Shown: in pieces, positions 9,048-45,891 of the stretch | Numbering within the stretch: position 1 is the first letter of the stretch | Layout: each line of letters starts with the position of its first letter | NCBI RefSeq assembly: GCF_003387155.1 | Contig: NZ_QUMT01000007.1 | Coordinates: 1-64,000 of the forward strand | Source of the DNA: Roseateles depolymerans | Lineage (GTDB): Bacteria > Pseudomonadota > Gammaproteobacteria > Burkholderiales > Burkholderiaceae_C | Direction of reading: 5' to 3' | Length of the DNA stretch: 64,000 nt | Notes under the pieces: generated by a model | Seen by the model: only the letters and a program-made list of their open reading frames with translations | Databases searched by the model: none | Told to the model about the DNA's origin: nothing | Made by a program: the position numbers and the translations under genes

Positions 9048-10964
9048 TCAGCGCTTGAGCACCGCGTCGCTCTTGGCCAGCTGCGCGTTCTGCTGATCCA
9101 ACCACACCTTGAGCGGCTGGAAATACTCGATCAGCGCGCTGCCGTCGAGCTGCTGCTCACCGGTCATCGCCTGCAGCGCCTGCGGCCAGGGCTTGCTGGC
9201 GCCCAGCTTCAGCATGGCCTGGTATTTCTCGCCCGCCTTCTTGTTGCCGAAGATCGAGCAGCTGTGCAGCGGCCCGGTATAACCCGCCTCGCGGCACAGG
9301 GCGCGCTGGAACTGGAACTGCAACAGGTGGGCCACGAAATACCGCGCATAGGCCACATCGGCCGCGACGTGGAACTTGGCACCGGCATCAAAGCCGCCCT
9401 CCTGCATCGGCACCGGGCGCGAAATGCCCTGGTAGGTCTCGCTCAGCGACCACCACACCTTGTCGTAGTCCTGCGGCTGCACCTGGCCGCCATAGACCTG
9501 CCAGCGCCATGCATCCACCTTGTAGGCGAAAGGCAGGAAGGCCACCTTGCGCAGCGCCTGCATCAGCAGGTTGTCGATGTCGTCGCCGGGGCGGTCGGTG
9601 TCCTTCATCAAGCCCAGGCGCTTGAGGTAGTCCGGCGTGATGGACAAGGCCACCGTGTCGCCAATGGCTTCATGGAACCCGTCATTGGCGCCGTTGCGGA
9701 ACAGGGTGGGTTGATGCCGGTAAGCCAGGTCGTAGTAGATGTGGCCCAGTTCGTGATGGATGGTGATGAAGTCCTCTTCCGTCGGACGGATGCACATCTT
9801 CACCCGCACATCCTGCTGCTGGTCAATGTCCCAGGCCGACGCATGGCAGACCACTTCCCGGTCCTGCGGCTTGGTCAGCAGCGAGCGCTCCCAGAACGTC
9901 TCGGGCAGGGTCTCCATGCCCAGCGAGGTGTAGAAGCCCTCCGCATACTTCACCATCTCCTTGGCGGAGGTGCCGCGCTGCACCAGCACCTGGCTCAGGT
10001 CATAGTCCCCCGCCTTGGCGGCCGGCTTGACCAGGGGATAGATGTTCTCCCAGCTCTGGCTCCACATGTTGCCCAGCAGATGCGCCGGGATCGGGCCGGT
10101 GGCGGGCACCTGGTCCGGGCCGTAGGTCTGGCGCAGCTTGTAGCGCACGTAGGTGTGCAGCGACTCATACAGCGGACGCACCTGCTGCCACACACGGGCC
10201 ATGTCGGCGGAGAAGGCGTCCGGCGTCATGTCATAGCCCGAGCGCCACAGGGCGCCGGTGTCGGCGAAGCCCATCGCTCGCGAGCCCTTGTTGGACAGGG
10301 CCACGTAATCCACGTAGTCCTGCTTGTAGGCACGGGACTGGGCATGCCAGCCCACCCAGGCGTCCTCGAGCTGGGCCGGGTCACGGCTCTCGGCCATGAT
10401 CTTTTCCAGATCGTCCAGCGCCAGGCAGGCCGGTTTGGTGTCGCCGTGCTGCTGCGGGCAGTATTTGGCCGTGCCGTAAGCACTGGTCATGCGGGTGGCC
10501 AGACGGGTGAAGCGGGCGCGCTCCTGGTCGTCCGGAATCATCATCGTCAGCTGCATCAGCTTGAGCTTGCGGGCCGTGTCGGCCGGCAGCGTCAGGCCGT
10601 TGTAGCGGCGGGCGGCCAGGGCCAGTTCGCCGGTGGCCTTGAGCAGTTCTTCGTTCGCCTCAGCGGTGATCTGCTGGGTGTCGTCGGTGATGAAGTTCTC
10701 CGCCACCCATTCATTGCGCTGCGACTTAATCAGCAGCGCTTCCAGGCGAGATTCGGCGTCCTTGACGAAGCGCTCGGCCTCTTGCCGGGTCGGTGCGGAT
10801 CGGGCCGCCTTGGCCGTCTTGCCCGCCTTGACGGGGGTCGCCGCCTGGCTGGTCGGCGCGGCCGCATCGGCCGGTGTGGCGGCACCAGCCGCCAGAGCGG
10901 TGGCGCCCAGGACGGTGGCGAGCGCCAGCCGGGACAGGCGGGCGTTGGAAATCGATCGTTTCAT
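9048..10964 (-). CDS. Secreted M2-family (angiotensin-converting-enzyme-like) metallopeptidase
   Basis: 638 residues from the ATG at 10964; a much longer open frame continues upstream but would run antisense through the neighbouring gene. Residues 1 to about 29 form a signal peptide (basic start, hydrophobic core, AAGAATPADA region), so the enzyme is probably periplasmic. The zinc motif HHELGH lies at residues 403-408, followed by a downstream HEAIGD segment that supplies the glutamate ligand in gluzincins. Peptidase family M2 enzymes remove C-terminal dipeptides from oligopeptides. The gene stands alone, divergent from the SpmA-SpmB-like gene (210-bp shared upstream region), and ends before an intrinsic terminator. 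Physiological substrate unknown. Confidence 0.92.
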   Translation of the reverse strand: MKRSISNARLSRLALATVLGATALAAGAATPADAAAPTSQAATPVKAGKTAKAARSAPTRQEAERFVKDAESRLEALLIKSQRNEWVAENFITDDTQQITAEANEELLKATGELALAARRYNGLTLPADTARKLKLMQLTMMIPDDQERARFTRLATRMTSAYGTAKYCPQQHGDTKPACLALDDLEKIMAESRDPAQLEDAWVGWHAQSRAYKQDYVDYVALSNKGSRAMGFADTGALWRSGYDMTPDAFSADMARVWQQVRPLYESLHTYVRYKLRQTYGPDQVPATGPIPAHLLGNMWSQSWENIYPLVKPAAKAGDYDLSQVLVQRGTSAKEMVKYAEGFYTSLGMETLPETFWERSLLTKPQDREVVCHASAWDIDQQQDVRVKMCIRPTEEDFITIHHELGHIYYDLAYRHQPTLFRNGANDGFHEAIGDTVALSITPDYLKRLGLMKDTDRPGDDIDNLLMQALRKVAFLPFAYKVDAWRWQVYGGQVQPQDYDKVWWSLSETYQGISRPVPMQEGGFDAGAKFHVAADVAYARYFVAHLLQFQFQRALCREAGYTGPLHSCSIFGNKKAGEKYQAMLKLGASKPWPQALQAMTGEQQLDGSALIEYFQPLKVWLDQQNAQLAKSDAVLKR

Positions 10965-39311: not shown

Positions 39312-42116
39312 ATGAGCAAGGCATTGGTGATCGCGGAGAAGCCCTCGGTGGCGCAGGACATCGTCCGTGCCCTGACCCCGCAGTCGGGCAAGTTCGACAA
39401 GCATGACGAGTACTTTGAAAACGACCAGTACATCGTCAGCTCCGCCGTGGGCCATTTGGTGGAGATCAAGGCACCGGAGGAATTCGACGTCAAGCGCGGC
39501 AAGTGGAGCTTTGCCCACCTGCCGGTGATCCCGCCGCATTTCGACCTCAACCCGATCGACAAGAGCAAGGGCCGGCTCAATGCACTGGTCAAGCTGATCA
39601 AGCGCAAGGACGTGACCTCGCTGATCAATGCCTGTGACGCGGGCCGCGAAGGGGAGCTGATCTTCCGCCTCATCGTGCAATACGCCGGTTCGGCCAAGGC
39701 GCCGGTGAACAAGCCGGTGTCGCGCCTGTGGCTGCAATCGATGACGCCGCAAGCCATCCGCGACGGCTTCGACGCCCTGCGCAGCGACCAGCAGATGCTG
39801 CCCCTGGCCGATGCCGCCCGCTGCCGGTCGGAAGCCGACTGGCTGGTGGGCATCAACGGCACCCGCGCCATGACCGCCTTCAATTCCCGCGATGGCGGCT
39901 TCTTCCTCACCACCGTGGGCCGCGTGCAGACGCCCACGCTGTCCATCGTGGTGGAGCGGGAAGAAAAGATCCGCAAGCACGTCTATCGGGACTACTGGGA
40001 AATCCGCGGCACCTTCGATGCCGTGGCCGGTCAGTACGAAGGCAAGTGGTTCGACCCCGCCTGGAAGAAGAACGAGCAGGACCCCGAGCAGCGGGCCGAC
40101 CGCGTCTGGACCCAGCAGGAAGCCGACGCCATTGCCGCCGCGGTGCGCGGCCAGCCGGCCACGGTGACCGAAGAGTCCAAGCCCAGCACCCAGGCCAGCC
40201 CCGGCCTGTATGACCTGACCACGCTGCAGCGGGAGGCCAACTCGCGGTTCGGGTTCTCGGCCAAGACGACGCTGTCGCTGGCGCAGGCCCTGTATGAAAA
40301 GCACAAGGTTCTGACCTACCCCCGGACCGACTCCCGCTATCTGCCGGAAGACTACCTGAGCGTGGCCAAGCAGACCGCGCAGATGATTGCCACGTCCGAC
40401 ATGCCCGGCCCCTTGCGTGCCCTGGCACCGCATGCGCAGACGGCCCTGTCCAACGGCTACATCAAGCCCACCAAGAAAGTGTTCGACAACAGCAAGGTGT
40501 CGGACCACTTCGCCATCATCCCGACGCTGCAAACCCCGTCCAGCCTGACCGAAGCCGAAGCCAAGCTGTACGACATGGTGGTCAAGCGCTTCCTGGCGGT
40601 GTTCTTCCCGCCAGCGGAATTCCAGGTCACCACCCGCATCTCGACGGTCAAGGCGGCCGGCAAGTCCTTCAGCTTCCAGACCAACGGCAAGGTGCTGGTC
40701 AAGCCGGGCTGGCAGGCGGTGTATGGCAAGGAAGCCACCGACGAGAACGCCGAACCGGGCACCAGCGGTGCCATGCTGGTGCCGGTGGCCGCCGGTGAGC
40801 TGGTGCGCACCGAAAGCGCCGACGTGAAGGCGCTGCAGACCAAGCCGCCGGCCCGCTACACCGAAGCCACGCTGCTGTCCGCCATGGAAGGCGCCGGCAA
40901 GCTGGTGGACGACGATGAACTGCGCGAAGCCATGGCCGAGAAGGGACTGGGCACCCCGGCCACGCGCGCGGCCATCATCGAAGGCCTGCTGGCCGAGAAG
41001 TACATGCTGCGCGAAGGCCGCGAGCTGATCCCCACGGCCAAGGCCTTCCAGCTGATGACGCTGCTGCGCGGCCTCGGCGTGGAAGAGCTGACCAAGCCCG
41101 AGCTGACCGGCAACTGGGAATTCCAGCTCTCCGAAATGGAGAAGGGCCGCCTCAAGCGCGAGGCCTTCATGGCCGAGATCGCCGCCATGACGCAGCGCGT
41201 CGTGCAAAAGGCCAAGGAATACGACCGGGACACCATTCCCGGCGACTACGCCACCCTCAAGACGCCCTGCCCCAAGTGCGGCGGCGTGGTGAAAGAGAAC
41301 TACCGGCGCTTCACCTGCGTGGGCAAGACCGGGCACGGCGACGAATGCGGTTTCTCCATCCCCAAGATCCCGGGGGGCCGCAGCTTCGAACTGCCCGAGG
41401 TCGAGACCTTCCTGCGCGAGAAGAAGGTCGGCCCCCTGGAAGGATTCCGGTCCAAGGCCGGCTGGCCCTTCACGGCCGAACTGGCGCTGGTCTTTGACGA
41501 CGAGATCAACAACTGGAAGCTGGAGTTCGACTTCGGCGAGGACGCCCGCAAGGCGGAGGAATCCGGCGAGCCGGTGGACTTCAGCGCCCAGACGCCGCTG
41601 GGCCACTGCCCCAAGTGCAATGGCCGGGTGTTCGACCACGGCTCCAACTACGTCTGCGAGCATGCGGTGGGCAGCCACATCGCCTGCGACTTCAAGAGCG
41701 GCAAGATCATCCTGCAGCAGCCGATCGAGGCGGCGCAGATGAGCAAACTGCTGGAGCACGGCAAGACCGACCTGCTGGAGAACTTCGTCTCCAACAAGAC
41801 ACGGCGCAAGTTCAAGGCCTACCTCACCTACGACCGCAAGGAAGGCAAGGTGGTGTTCGAGTTCGAGCCACGTGCCGCCAAGGGCGCGCCTGCGGCTCGC
41901 AAGTCGGCCACGGTCGGGCGTGCGGGGGCTGGCGCAGCGGCGGAGGACGGCGCCGAGGGGGCTGGGGCCAGCGCTGCCGCCAAGCCCGCCAAAACAGCGG
42001 CCAAAACTGCGGCCAAGGCCCCCGCCAAAGCCGCCAGCAAGACCGCCGCCAAGGCCCCGGCCAAGAAGACCGTGGTCCGCAAGGCGGCCGCGAAGAAGGC
42101 CACCGCCAGCTCCTGA
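39312..42116 (+). CDS. topB: DNA topoisomerase III
   Basis: 934 residues from ATG 39312, longer than E. coli TopB (653). N-terminal TOPRIM domain (ALVIAEKPSVAQDI, then DAGREGELIF), active-site tyrosine in LTYPRTDSRYLPEDY, and two C-terminal zinc-finger-like segments (CPKCGG...CGF; CPKCNG...CDF). The last 60 residues are a histone-H1-like Ala/Lys/Pro tail (KTAAKAPAKAASKTAAKAP). Type IA enzyme that decatenates and relaxes single-stranded-region DNA. The lysine tail probably adds non-specific DNA binding. Confidence 0.95.
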   Translation: MSKALVIAEKPSVAQDIVRALTPQSGKFDKHDEYFENDQYIVSSAVGHLVEIKAPEEFDVKRGKWSFAHLPVIPPHFDLNPIDKSKGRLNALVKLIKRKDVTSLINACDAGREGELIFRLIVQYAGSAKAPVNKPVSRLWLQSMTPQAIRDGFDALRSDQQMLPLADAARCRSEADWLVGINGTRAMTAFNSRDGGFFLTTVGRVQTPTLSIVVEREEKIRKHVYRDYWEIRGTFDAVAGQYEGKWFDPAWKKNEQDPEQRADRVWTQQEADAIAAAVRGQPATVTEESKPSTQASPGLYDLTTLQREANSRFGFSAKTTLSLAQALYEKHKVLTYPRTDSRYLPEDYLSVAKQTAQMIATSDMPGPLRALAPHAQTALSNGYIKPTKKVFDNSKVSDHFAIIPTLQTPSSLTEAEAKLYDMVVKRFLAVFFPPAEFQVTTRISTVKAAGKSFSFQTNGKVLVKPGWQAVYGKEATDENAEPGTSGAMLVPVAAGELVRTESADVKALQTKPPARYTEATLLSAMEGAGKLVDDDELREAMAEKGLGTPATRAAIIEGLLAEKYMLREGRELIPTAKAFQLMTLLRGLGVEELTKPELTGNWEFQLSEMEKGRLKREAFMAEIAAMTQRVVQKAKEYDRDTIPGDYATLKTPCPKCGGVVKENYRRFTCVGKTGHGDECGFSIPKIPGGRSFELPEVETFLREKKVGPLEGFRSKAGWPFTAELALVFDDEINNWKLEFDFGEDARKAEESGEPVDFSAQTPLGHCPKCNGRVFDHGSNYVCEHAVGSHIACDFKSGKIILQQPIEAAQMSKLLEHGKTDLLENFVSNKTRRKFKAYLTYDRKEGKVVFEFEPRAAKGAPAARKSATVGRAGAGAAAEDGAEGAGASAAAKPAKTAAKTAAKAPAKAASKTAAKAPAKKTVVRKAAAKKATASS

Positions 42117-42139
42117 GCGATCCGGAAAGCGGGTTGGGC

Positions 42140-42175
42140 TGACTGAGGGGTTTCACCTTTGGTCAGCCGCGATGA
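42140..42175 (+). pseudogene. Remnant of the 3' end of an array-type gene
   Basis: After a TGA at 42140 the frame reads LRGFTFGQPR and stops at 42173-42175, overlapping the ATG of the first array gene as ATGA. This matches LRDFLFGEPP, the end of the second array gene, which overlaps the third gene's ATG in the same way. Over 45 bases the two junctions are identical at about 35 positions. It looks like the end of a lost upstream paralogue. Confidence 0.55.
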
Positions 42176-42891
42176 GCTTTCCCCTTCCTTCCGCCTCCGG
42201 ATTTGTGCCGTCCGCCGCCCACCACGCGGACGGCACCGACAGCGACCCCGTTCCGTCCGGGAGGCGGCGGACAAGTTTGGCCAAGCTGGACTTCAGCGCA
42301 CTGCCGGATCCCACCCCGGCCATCATCACGCGTGAGACGGTCGAGTATTGGCATGAAAGGGCGATGTCGCTCAGGCTTCGACTGGAGACGCACATTGCTC
42401 AGCACGAACCCACCCTGACGCCGCACCTGACCGCGCGCTTCCATCGTTGCAAGGAACTCGAGAACTCCATCTTCGAGGCGCGGAACGGCCCCTTCAAGAG
42501 CCGCTTTGAAACGACCGAAGACGTGCGCGCTCGTAATGACTTCAATCAAATCAAGGCCAATCTGGGGGCGATCTGCGGGATTCTGCGAGACCATCCGGTG
42601 GCGGATGCGCTGATCCTGTTCCGCGACATGGCCCAGGGTGTGGATGAGGCCTCTGCCGTGACCCGGCACCTCTCGCGCCGGGGCGACGACCCCTCGACAA
42701 GGAACCACCTGACCACCATCAACGGTCTGATTCTCAAAATGGACAGGGCGGCCACGCTGGACGATGGCCGCCGGTCACTGGCGCAATTGCGGACCTACCT
42801 GGAGCCGTTGACCTATTCGTCTTCCGGAGTGCTACCGGCGCTGGCGCGCTTCCCGCTTCCCCGGTCACGCCAGGGTGGCATGCCCCTTTGA
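42172..42891 (+). CDS. Tandem paralogue array, gene A: unrecognised helical protein
   Basis: 239 residues, not recognised. Starts MSFPLPS like the other two array proteins. A polar N-terminus (1-50) precedes a helical region (55-170) and a second helical segment (175-212: RNHLTTINGLILKMDRAATL ... RRSLAQLR) that matches gene C (MRHQLEHLLFSLDRCSTLES ... CRSAMAALD). No signal peptide, membrane helix or enzymatic motif. It has no long low-complexity tail, unlike B and C. Preceded by topB with a 55-bp gap that carries an apparent remnant of another copy. Gene B starts 13 bases after its stop. Confidence 0.75.
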   Translation: MSFPLPSASGFVPSAAHHADGTDSDPVPSGRRRTSLAKLDFSALPDPTPAIITRETVEYWHERAMSLRLRLETHIAQHEPTLTPHLTARFHRCKELENSIFEARNGPFKSRFETTEDVRARNDFNQIKANLGAICGILRDHPVADALILFRDMAQGVDEASAVTRHLSRRGDDPSTRNHLTTINGLILKMDRAATLDDGRRSLAQLRTYLEPLTYSSSGVLPALARFPLPRSRQGGMPL

Positions 42892-42904
42892 CACCCCGAC
42901 CCTC

Positions 42905-43990
42905 ATGAGCTTCCAGCCCTTGAGCAGCAGTCCCGACATCTTCTCGGACTTGTCCTTGTTGGACGACCTCCTGTTCGGGAAGACCTCGTCGGCGCCGGCG
43001 AGCAGGACCTTCGAGCTCCCTCCGGGTGGCCCGGCCCCGACCCGTCTGCAGGGTCCGATCACCGTCAGGCAAGCCGCATCGGCGCTTGCGGAGGCGAACG
43101 AGGCGCTCAATGGGCTCGAAAACTACGTACTCGATCAGCGACGGTGTCTCTATGACTACGTGAAGGTTCGTGTCGAGCGCTACCACCTCCTGAAAGCGGC
43201 TCTCGTAGACGTGCTGGACCGCAAGCCGTTTGACCTTAGGTGCCAGCAGCGGATGATCGAGGGCCTCTTGCAGTTTCAGCGCGCCAACTGGGCGCTGAGG
43301 GAGTTGCTGGCGCACGAGCATGATCAACATCTCCAACCGGTTTTTTCGGAGTGCTTCAACTGGATCAAAGTGGCGCGATATTTAAAGCGTCAGGCCAGCA
43401 GTGCGCAACAGGAGTCCAGTGCCAGTGCCAGTGCCAGTGCCAGTGCCAGTGCCAGTGCCAGTGCCAACGCCAGTGCCAGTGCAATCCACGACTCGTTGTT
43501 CTGCCGCTTCGAGCGCAGTTCAAGCTGCCAAGACTGTCAGGACGTCCTGTTGGAGATCCGGGCTCGCTTGTCCCCCGACGCGACGGCCGCCGGCGCCGCA
43601 CTCGGTCTGAGCCCGCCGCTGGCCGTCCAGGCCCGGCCAACGACCGTTGCGGGCCCGCTGGTGCTTGGCTGCTCGCCAGACCGCAAGCGCCCTTTGCAAG
43701 GCCCGTCTCCTGACGCTGGCCGCCAAGGGCTTGCCAGCCATGGGCTTGCCGGTGGGAGCGGTGATCCGTGCCCCGCCCCCTCCGTCAAGCGACGGCTGGC
43801 GGAACGACTGAGCGAGAGGTGGGGAGAGACCGGGGGAGGGGCCGGGGGCGGCGCCGAGGCTAGGCCGGCACCCGCTCGACCAGGCCTTGAGAGCTTCCGT
43901 TCGGCGCAGGCAGGCTCGCAGGCGTTGAGGGGCGACCCAGATTGGTCCATGGGCCAACTGAGGGATTTCCTTTTCGGTGAGCCGCCATGA
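42905..43990 (+). CDS. Tandem paralogue array, gene B: unrecognised protein with Ser-Ala repeat
   Basis: 361 residues, not recognised. MSFQPLS start; helical domain residues about 55-163 (YDYVKVRVERYHLLKAAL ... QFQRANWALRELL) aligning with gene C at nearly identical residue numbers. Then a (Ser-Ala)n run at 172-193 from an AGTGCC microsatellite, a second short helical piece (HDSLFCRFERSSSCQDCQDV), and a Gly/Pro/Arg-rich disordered tail. The motif D(L/F)LFG occurs at both ends (DDLLFGK at 20-26, RDFLFGE near the C-terminus). The stop overlaps gene C's ATG (ATGA). Confidence 0.75.
   Translation: MSFQPLSSSPDIFSDLSLLDDLLFGKTSSAPASRTFELPPGGPAPTRLQGPITVRQAASALAEANEALNGLENYVLDQRRCLYDYVKVRVERYHLLKAALVDVLDRKPFDLRCQQRMIEGLLQFQRANWALRELLAHEHDQHLQPVFSECFNWIKVARYLKRQASSAQQESSASASASASASASASANASASAIHDSLFCRFERSSSCQDCQDVLLEIRARLSPDATAAGAALGLSPPLAVQARPTTVAGPLVLGCSPDRKRPLQGPSPDAGRQGLASHGLAGGSGDPCPAPSVKRRLAERLSERWGETGGGAGGGAEARPAPARPGLESFRSAQAGSQALRGDPDWSMGQLRDFLFGEPP
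43418..43483 (+). repeat. AGTGCC hexanucleotide microsatellite in gene B
   Basis: Eight perfect AGTGCC units, then AACGCC, AGTGCC and AGTGCA: eleven hexamers in register encoding alternating Ser and Ala. Copy-number change would alter linker length without a frameshift. Confidence 0.95.
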
Positions 43991-45891
43991 GCTTCTCCCT
44001 CACATCCTCCGCGGGCCCCTCTCAGGAAGCCCTCGTGATGTCGCCGGACTTCCCCGACGCACCCGACGTCGCACCGCCTGATCCGCAGATGACCTCCGAC
44101 ATCCTGGCGCAGGAGCCGCCCGAGCCGGTGAACTACGGCTCGGATTCACGCGAGTGGAGGCGCTGTCTCGCCGACGTCATGGACGCCCAGCACAGGCTGC
44201 AGGATGCGCTCCTGCGAAAGAACCCGTGGATCTATTACGTGGTGAGCGATCGCTTCCAGCGCTATGACGCCCTCACTGCCGCACTGAGCAAGCTGCTCCC
44301 TGGCACCTTCGGCAAGGACAAGGAACGCTTCTTCGTCGAGAAGATTCACCAGTTCCGCATCGCCCTCTGGTCGCTGTCACAGCTGCTGCGCCAAGCCCAC
44401 GATCCCTCCATCCCTGTCCTTCTGCAGGAGATCAGCGCCAGCGTGAACTTGGCAAGACGGCTGCTGCGGCAACTCGAAGATGAACAGCCCCCCAGTGCCA
44501 GCACGCTGGCGATGCGCCACCAGCTGGAGCACCTGCTGTTCAGCCTGGATCGCTGCAGCACCCTGGAATCCTGCCGGTCGGCCATGGCGGCGCTGGACAC
44601 CCGTCGGAGACATCTGCAACAGGAGTACGTGACGCAACGCCTCCTTTCAGGCTCGCCCAGCATTGCCCCTGCCTCCATCCGCCCTGCGCCATGGGAACGA
44701 GCCTCGGCCCCGCAAGATGTCCAGACCATGCAGTCGACGTATGGCGCACCCCGTCCCTCTTCGTCCACCCCACCGCATCTGTCGCGACATCCCTCGCCCT
44801 ATTTGTCGCTCCATTCGTCGCCACATCTGCCACCACATCTGCCGCCATGGCTGCCGCCACCCTATTCGCCGGCGCCGTATGTCCAGCCCTCTCCCGTGCT
44901 GCCAGCCGCGCTATCTGCCGCGCCAGATGACTCATCCCGCGGCCCATCCGGTGCCCGAGCGTATGCCCTGCGCGATGGCGGGTCTTCGGGCGCCGCCCCT
45001 GTGCGCTCCTGCGGCACACTGCGATCTCCCCCCGATGGTCCAGCCCGTGGGTACACCGATGCTCGAACTGCGTCAGGTCGGCTGCCCTCTCCCGAGGACG
45101 GCCGGGTCCCGTCGCCGCAAACCGTCCGGCTCCCAGCGCCCCAAGCAGACCCGCATCCGACATTCCTGTTTCGCGCGGAAGAGGCGGTCCCGCTGGAATC
45201 GCTGCCAATGACCGTGCGGGGCTCACCGACCTGGATGTTCCAGCCGGATGTGGGGGATGGAGGGACCGGCGCCGTTGCCGGTGCTGGCCAGCGTGACGGG
45301 GAAGCCGGCGCACCGCAGTCTGGCCCTGCCCCTTTGCAACTCCCAGCCGATGCGCAGGCGCCGGGGAAACGACGGGCCCGACGTTCGCAGTTGCCTGACG
45401 CCGCGCGGCTGCAAGGCACAACCGCGGGCACGACCGCGGGCAGAAGCGCAGGCAAAAGCGCAGGCAAAAGCGCCGACAAGCACACCAGCACGAAGGTCGA
45501 CACGAAGGTCGACACCGACTCGGGCACGGAATCCACCAAGCTTCCCCCCCGGCGCAAGCGCCCCGCGGGTGAGGTGCCTGGCCTTTCCACGCGCCTATCC
45601 GCTCACACGGTCATCAGTACCGTGAAACGCCTGGACGTCCGTACCGTGGTGCAGCGCACGAGTACCAGTACCAGTACCAGTACCAGCACCACTCGGCCGC
45701 GACACGCCTCTTCGTACCCGCCAACCGGGTGGGACCCGGACATGGTGACCCTGGTGTTTCCGAGGTCCGTGGCGGTGCCGCTGGAGCCGTCGCCCCTGGA
45801 GGACGAGCCCCTGGTGATGGAGGTCTTTGAGGAGCCCATCCCGGTGGAGGATGAGTGCTCGTCTTCGTCGACCTCCAGCCAGGGGACGTGA
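43987..45891 (+). CDS. Tandem paralogue array, gene C: unrecognised protein with long disordered tail
   Basis: 634 residues, not recognised. MSFSLTS start; helical domain about 55-162 (YYVVSDRFQRYDALTAAL ... HQFRIALWSLSQLLRQAHD) and a second helical segment 175-212. From about 225 on the protein is a Pro/Ser/His/Arg-rich disordered tail with short internal repeats (SAGKSAGKSADK, TKVDTKVDT, STSTSTST) and basic clusters (KRRARR, PPRRKRP) that resemble nuclear-localisation or nucleic-acid-binding patches. Ends acidic (EPIPVEDE). Coupled to gene B by a 4-base overlap. No secretion signal or enzymatic motif seen. Confidence 0.75.
   Translation: MSFSLTSSAGPSQEALVMSPDFPDAPDVAPPDPQMTSDILAQEPPEPVNYGSDSREWRRCLADVMDAQHRLQDALLRKNPWIYYVVSDRFQRYDALTAALSKLLPGTFGKDKERFFVEKIHQFRIALWSLSQLLRQAHDPSIPVLLQEISASVNLARRLLRQLEDEQPPSASTLAMRHQLEHLLFSLDRCSTLESCRSAMAALDTRRRHLQQEYVTQRLLSGSPSIAPASIRPAPWERASAPQDVQTMQSTYGAPRPSSSTPPHLSRHPSPYLSLHSSPHLPPHLPPWLPPPYSPAPYVQPSPVLPAALSAAPDDSSRGPSGARAYALRDGGSSGAAPVRSCGTLRSPPDGPARGYTDARTASGRLPSPEDGRVPSPQTVRLPAPQADPHPTFLFRAEEAVPLESLPMTVRGSPTWMFQPDVGDGGTGAVAGAGQRDGEAGAPQSGPAPLQLPADAQAPGKRRARRSQLPDAARLQGTTAGTTAGRSAGKSAGKSADKHTSTKVDTKVDTDSGTESTKLPPRRKRPAGEVPGLSTRLSAHTVISTVKRLDVRTVVQRTSTSTSTSTSTTRPRHASSYPPTGWDPDMVTLVFPRSVAVPLEPSPLEDEPLVMEVFEEPIPVEDECSSSSTSSQGT
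45661..45690 (+). repeat. AGTACC hexanucleotide microsatellite in gene C
   Basis: Four AGTACC units and one AGCACC, encoding Ser-Thr repeats in the tail of gene C. Same 6-base period as the microsatellite in gene B. Confidence 0.9.

What the first reader, a model, noticed from the sequence alone, without database searches (positions are those of the whole stretch)
42172..45891. Tandem array of three uncharacterised paralogues with disordered, microsatellite-bearing tails
Three consecutive plus-strand genes encode proteins that all start MSF and share a helical domain of about 110 residues, then diverge into low-complexity tails. Genes B and C align almost without gaps: Y83, V86, R89, R92, Y93, L96, A98, A99 and L100 are identical at the same residue numbers, followed by matching QF..A.W.L..LL...HD and AR.L.RQ segments. 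Gene A shares the second helical segment with C (LDR..TL...RS...L). B and C overlap by ATGA. No family comes to mind. Tail length and content differ strongly, and basic patches in C resemble nuclear-localisation signals, which would suit translocated effectors or nucleic-acid binding, but that is speculation.
Basis: partly seen in the sequence, partly recalled or inferred. Interest (0 to 1): 0.85.

Follow-up and report, generated by a model that had tools for sequence, protein, structure and literature searches.

The report
Fast-diverging candidate injected-protein gene cluster
Three neighbouring genes in a Roseateles bacterium belong to an undescribed, very fast-changing protein family that, in the genomes compared, goes together with one particular molecular syringe (a type III secretion system), so they are probably proteins injected into eukaryotic cells, although injection itself has not been shown.

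Summary
The three genes are real and homologous (B-C BLASTP E 4e-12, A-C 2e-5) and match no family in Pfam, NCBIfam or PADLOC. AlphaFold2 gives a confident six-helix domain of about 170 residues, between a disordered N-terminus and, in C, a roughly 414-residue disordered tail. The genus is Roseateles. The family sits in one slot, between topB and a sensor kinase: 3 genes here, 4, 2 or 1 in relatives. The flanking kinase is 97% identical between close species, but slot proteins only 23-32%. Slot proteins occur in 11 of 16 genus genomes; one more (G010) is unresolved because of an assembly gap. [quoted passage not shown] The other system, T3SS-1, disagrees in three resolved genomes. N-termini are rich in Ser/Thr/Pro and poor in early acidic residues. 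Tails recurrently carry an RKRP-like basic motif and an acidic C-terminus. Best reading: T3SS-2 effectors of a new, genus-restricted family; nuclear action possible. Export, host and activity are untested. Membership of four divergent proteins rests on weak profile matches plus position.

The parts
42137..42168 (+). hairpin between the topB stop and the ATG of gene A (leader; may be a topB terminator or a control element)
   Evidence: fold z -5.8, 0 of 200 shuffles as good; similar leaders in G008, G001, G011, G002, G007, G009
42172..42891 (+). gene A, 239 aa, family member with almost no tail
42325..42816 (+). helical domain of A (approximate limits)
   Evidence: alignment A3
42905..43990 (+). 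gene B, 361 aa, family member
43058..43588 (+). helical domain of B (approximate limits), with the repeat inside it
   Evidence: alignment A3
43416..43482 (+). (CCAGTG)11 microsatellite coding Ser-Ala repeats, in a loop of B's helical domain
   Evidence: place in the domain
43673..43702 (+). basic motif DRKRP in B's tail
43987..45891 (+). gene C, 634 aa, family member; overlaps B by ATGA
44146..44646 (+). six-helix domain of C (residues 54-220)
   Evidence: AlphaFold2 pLDDT 92 on the core; the confident part of full-length C
45541..45570 (+). basic motif RRKRP in C's tail, kept in the homologue P0002
45661..45691 (+). (AGTACC)5 microsatellite in C's tail
45769..45888 (+). acidic C-terminal 40 residues of C; of the last 34 residues 27 are identical in P0002

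Best explanation
A, B and C are members of a new, Roseateles-restricted family of proteins exported by one of the genome's two type III secretion systems (T3SS-2) into eukaryotic cells. The disordered Ser/Thr/Pro-rich first 40-60 residues act as the export signal. The six-helix domain is the conserved functional or target-binding module. The disordered tails carry localisation and interaction motifs: basic patches that may be nuclear-localisation signals and an acidic C-terminus. The array grows and shrinks by tandem duplication in one chromosomal slot and diversifies quickly, as expected under pressure from hosts. Shown: homology, slot, divergence, co-distribution with T3SS-2, predicted order and disorder, N-terminal composition. 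Inferred: export, entry into a host cell, nuclear destination, target.
For: Co-distribution: slot protein in 11 of 16 genus genomes; T3SS-2 SctC orthologue (51% identity or more, nearly full length) in the same 11 and in none of the other 5. G010 is left out as unresolved (assembly gap in the interval), so 15 of 15 scorable genomes agree; by my arithmetic 1 in 1365 for random labels, before allowing for phylogeny. Tree of 16 genus genomes plus 3 outgroups: the resolved negatives are G006 (outgroup of the rest), G014, G005 and G003, so three joint losses after one gain, two if the moderately supported placements of G005 and G003 are wrong. Specificity: T3SS-1 SctC is in 13 of 16 and disagrees with the slot in G002, G005 and G014 (12 of 15 agree). 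N-terminus: S/T/P in residues 2-26 is 0.396 in 19 family proteins versus 0.205 in 166 crudely called background ORFs (p 4e-9); no acidic residue in the first 12 in 15 of 19 versus 73 of 166 (p 0.004); MSF start 11 of 19 versus 1 of 166. Non-flagellar T3SS-2: SctC, SctJ and SctR over the NCBIfam cut-offs, SctN over a broader FliI/YscN cut-off, SctU below its cut-off; SctQ over, SctI and SctD below Pfam cut-offs; SctV and SctT by my reading of the ORFs. Tails: [RK]KR[PVA] in 6 of 20 versus 0.12 expected in shuffles (0 of 500). C-terminal 40 residues more acidic than the rest of the tail in 9 of 9 (p 0.004), 49 of 116 in background. GC3 0.75-0.78 against 0.86-0.90 in four neighbours.
Against: No export data. 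The slot is not next to T3SS-2 (contigs C7 and C1). No hrp, PIP or tts box (patterns recalled) was found upstream of A on its strand. Confident members lie in one slot and its edge, whereas effector genes are usually scattered (general knowledge). Co-distribution within one genus cannot exclude loss of both for a common lifestyle reason. The RKR and acidic-end tests were chosen after looking, and C and P0002 are close homologues, so the six are not all independent. The lower GC3 is not extreme: the 5th percentile of 34 window ORFs is 0.743. Ser/Pro-rich N-termini are also common in disordered proteins generally. T3SS-2 parts SctS, SctL, the needle and a translocon were not identified.
Confidence: 0.6

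Rival explanations
1. The slot proteins serve T3SS-2 inside the bacterium, as regulators, chaperones or assembly/export-switch proteins, rather than being exported as effectors.
For: Same co-distribution with T3SS-2. All-helical fold, which is common in T3SS-associated cytoplasmic proteins (general knowledge).
Against: Extreme divergence (23-32% against 97% for the flanking kinase), copy number 1 to 4, and long disordered tails, up to about 414 residues, with a disordered Ser/Pro-rich N-terminus are unlike conserved machinery parts. T3SS-2 SctC itself is 51-85% identical to that of G000 across the same species.
Confidence: 0.16
2. The family acts without any secretion system, for example in competition, phage defence or surface biology, and its distribution matches T3SS-2 only because both were lost in the same lineages.
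For: Only 16 genomes in one genus, 15 scorable; the losses fall on few branches. The slot is physically separate from T3SS-2.
Against: 15 of 15 agreement with T3SS-2 but 12 of 15 with T3SS-1 in the same genomes. No PADLOC match for the 8 of 19 proteins scanned. No match in plasmids with C or in phages with C's domain.
Confidence: 0.19
3. The ORFs are largely non-functional, fast-drifting sequence, perhaps recently born, with helical character by composition.
For: Genus-restricted as far as searched; microsatellites; very low identity between species.
Against: The helical core is recognisable across species above 972 decoys (7 of 12 held-out proteins); AlphaFold2 pLDDT 92; between C and P0002 the core and the last 34 residues are conserved while the middle of the tail is less so; frames stay open in up to four tandem genes in different species.
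Confidence: 0.05

Closest known systems
Type III effectors of plant-associated bacteria, as a functional kind
   Same: Co-occurrence with a specific T3SS, Ser/Thr/Pro-rich N-terminus with few early acidic residues, modular domain plus disordered tail, rapid diversification, somewhat lowered GC3.
   Different: No profile match in Pfam (A, B, C) or NCBIfam (8 of 19 proteins). Genes lie in one fixed slot in tandem, away from the T3SS locus. Export is not shown.
TAL/AvrBs3 effectors (recalled, for logic only)
   Same: Possible order of parts: N-terminal export signal, structured module, basic nuclear-localisation-like motif, acidic C-terminus.
   Different: No 34-residue repeats; the structured module is a single six-helix domain; DNA binding and transcriptional activity are unknown.
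De novo designed helical repeat proteins (such as DHR76, DHR79) and BAR-like long helical bundles
   Different: No shared function implied; most high-Z rows cover about half of the domain.

Membership tests
Type III secretion effector | the genome encodes a non-flagellar T3SS | tested here: met
   two SctC loci in G000 over the TIGR02516 cut-off; most T3SS-2 core parts by profile or by reading, several below curated cut-offs, some parts not identified
Type III secretion effector | presence follows a particular T3SS across strains | tested here: met
   15 of 15 scorable genomes agree with T3SS-2, 12 of 15 with T3SS-1; G010 unresolved
Type III secretion effector | N-terminal export-signal composition | tested here: met
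   as a group; 4 of the 19 (G000B, G001E, G009a, G015a) have an acidic residue in the first 12
Type III secretion effector | T3SS-dependent export or translocation | not testable with these tools
   needs a secretion or translocation assay
Type III secretion effector | T3SS regulator box in the promoter | tested here: inconclusive
   recalled hrp, PIP and tts patterns: none upstream of A on its strand; the box used by Roseateles is not known to me
TAL/AvrBs3 | tandem 34-residue repeats | tested here: not met
   no Pfam match over cut-off in A, B, C; single six-helix domain in C
Any described protein family (Pfam, NCBIfam) | profile match over the curated cut-off | tested here: not met
   Pfam for A, B, C (for 16 cores lists only weak matches up to E 0.008), NCBIfam for 8 of 19 proteins
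Anti-phage defence system | match to a PADLOC model | tested here: not met
   8 of the 19 proteins scanned, none matched at E 0.01
BAR / long helical bundle folds | shared fold over the whole domain | tested here: inconclusive

The most novel reading that the evidence does not exclude
A new class of nuclear-acting effectors. A helical-bundle module delivered by T3SS-2 is steered to the eukaryotic nucleus by an RKRP-type signal and uses a conserved acidic-hydrophobic C-terminus, or SUMO-interaction-like motifs (EFIDLTSSDSD in a G008 paralogue, PIVVEDESSSSS in P0002), to engage host transcription or SUMO-dependent complexes. The chromosomal slot would act as a diversification site that renews this repertoire between species whose neighbouring genes are 97% identical.
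Probability: 0.15. Interest if true: 0.85.

Novelty: new member of a known kind. Interest (0 to 1): 0.6.

Why it matters
I found no description of type III effectors in Roseateles or Mitsuaria in the held library (searches; I saw listings only). If right, this gives the genus a first effector family, points to eukaryotic partners for bacteria that I recall as soil, water and root inhabitants, and offers a compact natural experiment: one chromosomal slot in which an effector-like array is rebuilt while its neighbours hardly change.

Tried and rejected
Weak hits outside the slot were checked and rejected: G026 (inside a hybrid kinase ORF), G007:C1:760839 (inside an unrelated hydrolase ORF) and G448 (a chemotaxis receptor). 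Single-protein scans gave no member in genome contigs, plasmids or phages. No Foldseek match at E 0.001 or better in PDB or in viral structures; solved-structure profile matches were marginal, best E 0.008, mostly designed or coiled proteins.

Leader hairpin as a T3SS control element: nine leaders fold well (eight first genes that directly follow topB, and G008 paralogue 2; z -1.9 to -7.7), against four other upstream regions of the same clusters (z -0.9 to 0.2). But six further upstream regions, three of them of first genes that do not directly follow topB (G012, G015, G004), gave z -1.5 to 1.25, and strong hairpins also follow topB in four of eight genomes where no family gene sits directly there. 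The core pattern was not found in the T3SS-2 locus. It may be only a topB terminator, and is left as an observation.

G010 was first counted as lacking the gene. On re-check its kinase lies 182 bases from a contig start and its topB contig ends inside the gene that precedes the kinase in its relatives. In G004 the family gene lies exactly in that stretch, so G010 is now unresolved; my confidence fell from 0.62 to 0.60 for this.

The G002 protein beyond about residue 190 reads antisense over a LysR gene (by eye), so its tail was left out of the final acidic-end test and its basic motif is not used; it is still among the 20 tails but not among the six with [RK]KR[PVA]. The 399-genome search outside the genus scored only 8 candidates per genome and missed the divergent G004 member, and the protein search scored only the 7998 candidates sharing most words, so genus restriction holds only as far as these searches reach.

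Full report
WHAT IS THERE. Genes A (42172-42891), B (42905-43990) and C (43987-45891) lie head to tail on the + strand, all begin MSF, and B and C overlap by ATGA. BLASTP supports B-C (E 4e-12) and A-C (E 2e-5) but not A-B (best E 0.32). No Pfam family reaches its cut-off. A search of the window's own genome with C found only C itself and B.

THE FAMILY AND ITS SLOT. A search of 100 related genomes with C's domain gave a cluster of four paralogues in one same-genus genome, G008, and a weak hit that proved to be a single gene in G001. All of them lie between topB (topoisomerase III) and a HAMP/PAS sensor kinase, as in the window. I then fetched the topB-kinase interval of the other genus genomes. 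Members: G000 3, G008 4, G011 2, G012 2, G015 one gene with two domains plus one gene beyond the kinase, and one each in G001, G002, G004, G007, G009 and G013: 19 proteins in 11 of 16 genomes. G003, G005, G006 and G014 have none. G010 is unresolved: its topB contig runs through LysR, GST and part of an oxidase gene and ends, and its kinase starts 182 bases into another contig; in G004 the family gene lies in just that stretch.

IS IT ONE FAMILY? A profile from A, B, C, the four G008 proteins and the database homologue P0002 was tested on the 12 held-out proteins mixed with 972 decoys (shuffled or reversed) and 132 other ORFs. Seven of 12 ranked above every decoy and ORF, E 3e-15 to 0.017; the best decoy had 0.098. 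After five were added, three held-out proteins reached E 4e-7 to 2e-4, better than the best control (0.014). G007, G004 and G009 (E 0.1 to 0.6) fell among the controls and G002 was not listed. For these four, profile-profile comparison gave E 3e-4 over 140 columns (G004+G002, probability 40%) and 6e-5 over 135 columns (G007+G009, probability 66%); scores were 29.7 and 33.6 against a best of 19.8 in 60 column shuffles each, but the two pairs did not match each other (E 0.07). BLASTP links G002-G004 (4e-8), G007-G009 (4e-10), G004-G001 (0.004) and G007-G015 (0.001). So 15 of 19 are well supported, and four rest on weak profile matches plus position. A genus-wide search with the core alignment found no confident copy outside the slot and its edge (its 16 hits at E 1e-39 or better are the model's own rows, the next is 0.0165). 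In 399 genomes of the wider family only G000, G001 and a chemotaxis receptor matched, with only 8 candidates scored per genome. In 11 genomes of other genera the kinase follows topB closely (G166, G043, G139, G045, G028, G198) or other genes precede it (G022, G049, G132, G051, G130) by a crude gene call. A six-frame profile search of these 11 loci and of the five G003, G005, G006, G010 and G014 loci gave nothing better than E 1.1, while it found the G008, G001 and G013 genes put in as positives; it would miss very divergent members. Two searches of the 5.8-billion-protein database gave three homologues.

WHO. G010 is R. chitinivorans HWN-4, by the same kinase position at a contig start. The window comes from an unnamed relative of R. 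terrae (tree support 77).

SHAPE. AlphaFold2 on the core of C, with 16 aligned rows, gives pLDDT 92 and six helices. Full-length C is confident only from about residue 40 to 220; nearly all of the rest has pLDDT below 50. No clear structural relative was found.

LINK TO A TYPE III SECRETION SYSTEM. G000 has two SctC-type secretins over the family cut-off. One locus (C1, about 682-700 kb; 'T3SS-2') carries SctC, SctJ and SctR over NCBIfam cut-offs, SctN (over the FliI/YscN cut-off, under the SctN one), SctU (under its cut-off), SctQ (over its Pfam cut-off), SctI, SctD and an HrpF-like ORF (under theirs), and SctV and SctT by my reading. SctS, SctL, a needle and a translocon were not identified. 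T3SS-2 SctC orthologues at 51-100% identity occur in G000, G001, G002, G004, G007, G008, G009, G011, G012, G013 and G015 and in none of G003, G005, G006, G010, G014. That is the slot distribution in all 15 scorable genomes. T3SS-1 SctC occurs in 13 of 16 (48-59% in G012, split over two frames; 59% in G005 and G010) and disagrees with the slot in G002, G005 and G014. On a tree of topB, kinase and a transporter, with genes missing in several genomes and only topB for G010, the negatives are G006 at the base, G014 beside the positive G015 (support 98), G005 with G010 (63) and G003. One gain and three joint losses is the simplest account on this tree. The agreement is strong for so few genomes but is not a functional test.

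SEQUENCE SIGNALS. Against 166 crudely called background ORFs, the 19 proteins have more S/T/P in residues 2-26 (0.396 versus 0.205), more Ser in the first 50 (0.128 versus 0.064), fewer early acidic residues (none in the first 12 in 15 of 19 versus 73 of 166), and 11 of 19 start MSF against 1 of 166. Such N-terminal features are used to nominate T3SS effectors; [quoted passage not shown] that their absence is meant is my recollection. In 20 tails (19 plus P0002), [RK]KR[PVA] occurs in six (B, C, G008D3, G012a, G004a, P0002) against a shuffle mean of 0.12; any three basic residues in a row occur in seven against 2.2. In the nine long tails of the final test (G002 and P0002 left out), the last 40 residues are more acidic than the rest in all nine, versus 49 of 116 background proteins. 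These tests were devised after seeing the sequences. Between C and P0002 the last 34 residues are 27 identical, while residues 251-350 are 33 of 99 aligned. SUMO-interaction-like strings in G008D3 and P0002, not in C itself, matched a pattern of mine in 2 of 20 tails, against 0.03 in shuffles; this too is post hoc.

PACE. Between G000 and G001 or G008 the flanking kinase is 97% identical, while the best slot-protein matches are 23% and 32%. GC3 of A-C is 0.75-0.78 against 0.86-0.90 in the four neighbours measured and a 5th percentile of 0.743 among 34 window ORFs.

JUDGEMENT. The best-supported account is a set of T3SS-2 effectors that diversify in a fixed chromosomal slot (0.60). The nuclear reading is attractive but rests on short motifs (0.15).

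Noticed in passing
window 42117-42171; L012:8610-8665 and 9886-9940; L014:7383-7444; L026, L030, L031, L032 just after topB: Hairpin between the topB stop and the first family gene, with ACTGA in all eight aligned leaders and outer stems that pair with different letters in different species; a similar leader recurs before the second G008 paralogue. Function unknown; some topB genes without an adjacent family gene also have hairpins.
   Followed up: partly
L028:964-2403 and L028:4727-5497: In G015 two helical domains are fused in one gene, and another family gene sits on the far side of the sensor kinase.
   Followed up: partly
L031:7276-8301 (- strand): The G002 slot ORF runs on antisense over the neighbouring LysR gene (by eye), which may mean a lost original end.
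   Followed up: no
G011:C34:584018 and G012:C1:1774386: An additional SctC-type secretin, only 30-39% identical to those of T3SS-1 and T3SS-2, in two of the 16 genomes.
   Followed up: no
window 39982-40069: ARAGORN calls a tRNA-Glu inside the topB coding sequence; probably a false call.
   Followed up: no
G002, G003, G004, G005, G007, G010, G013, topB-kinase interval: A LysR-GST-oxidase gene trio occupies the same interval in these genomes, with or without family genes (read by eye, LysR on the other strand).
   Followed up: no
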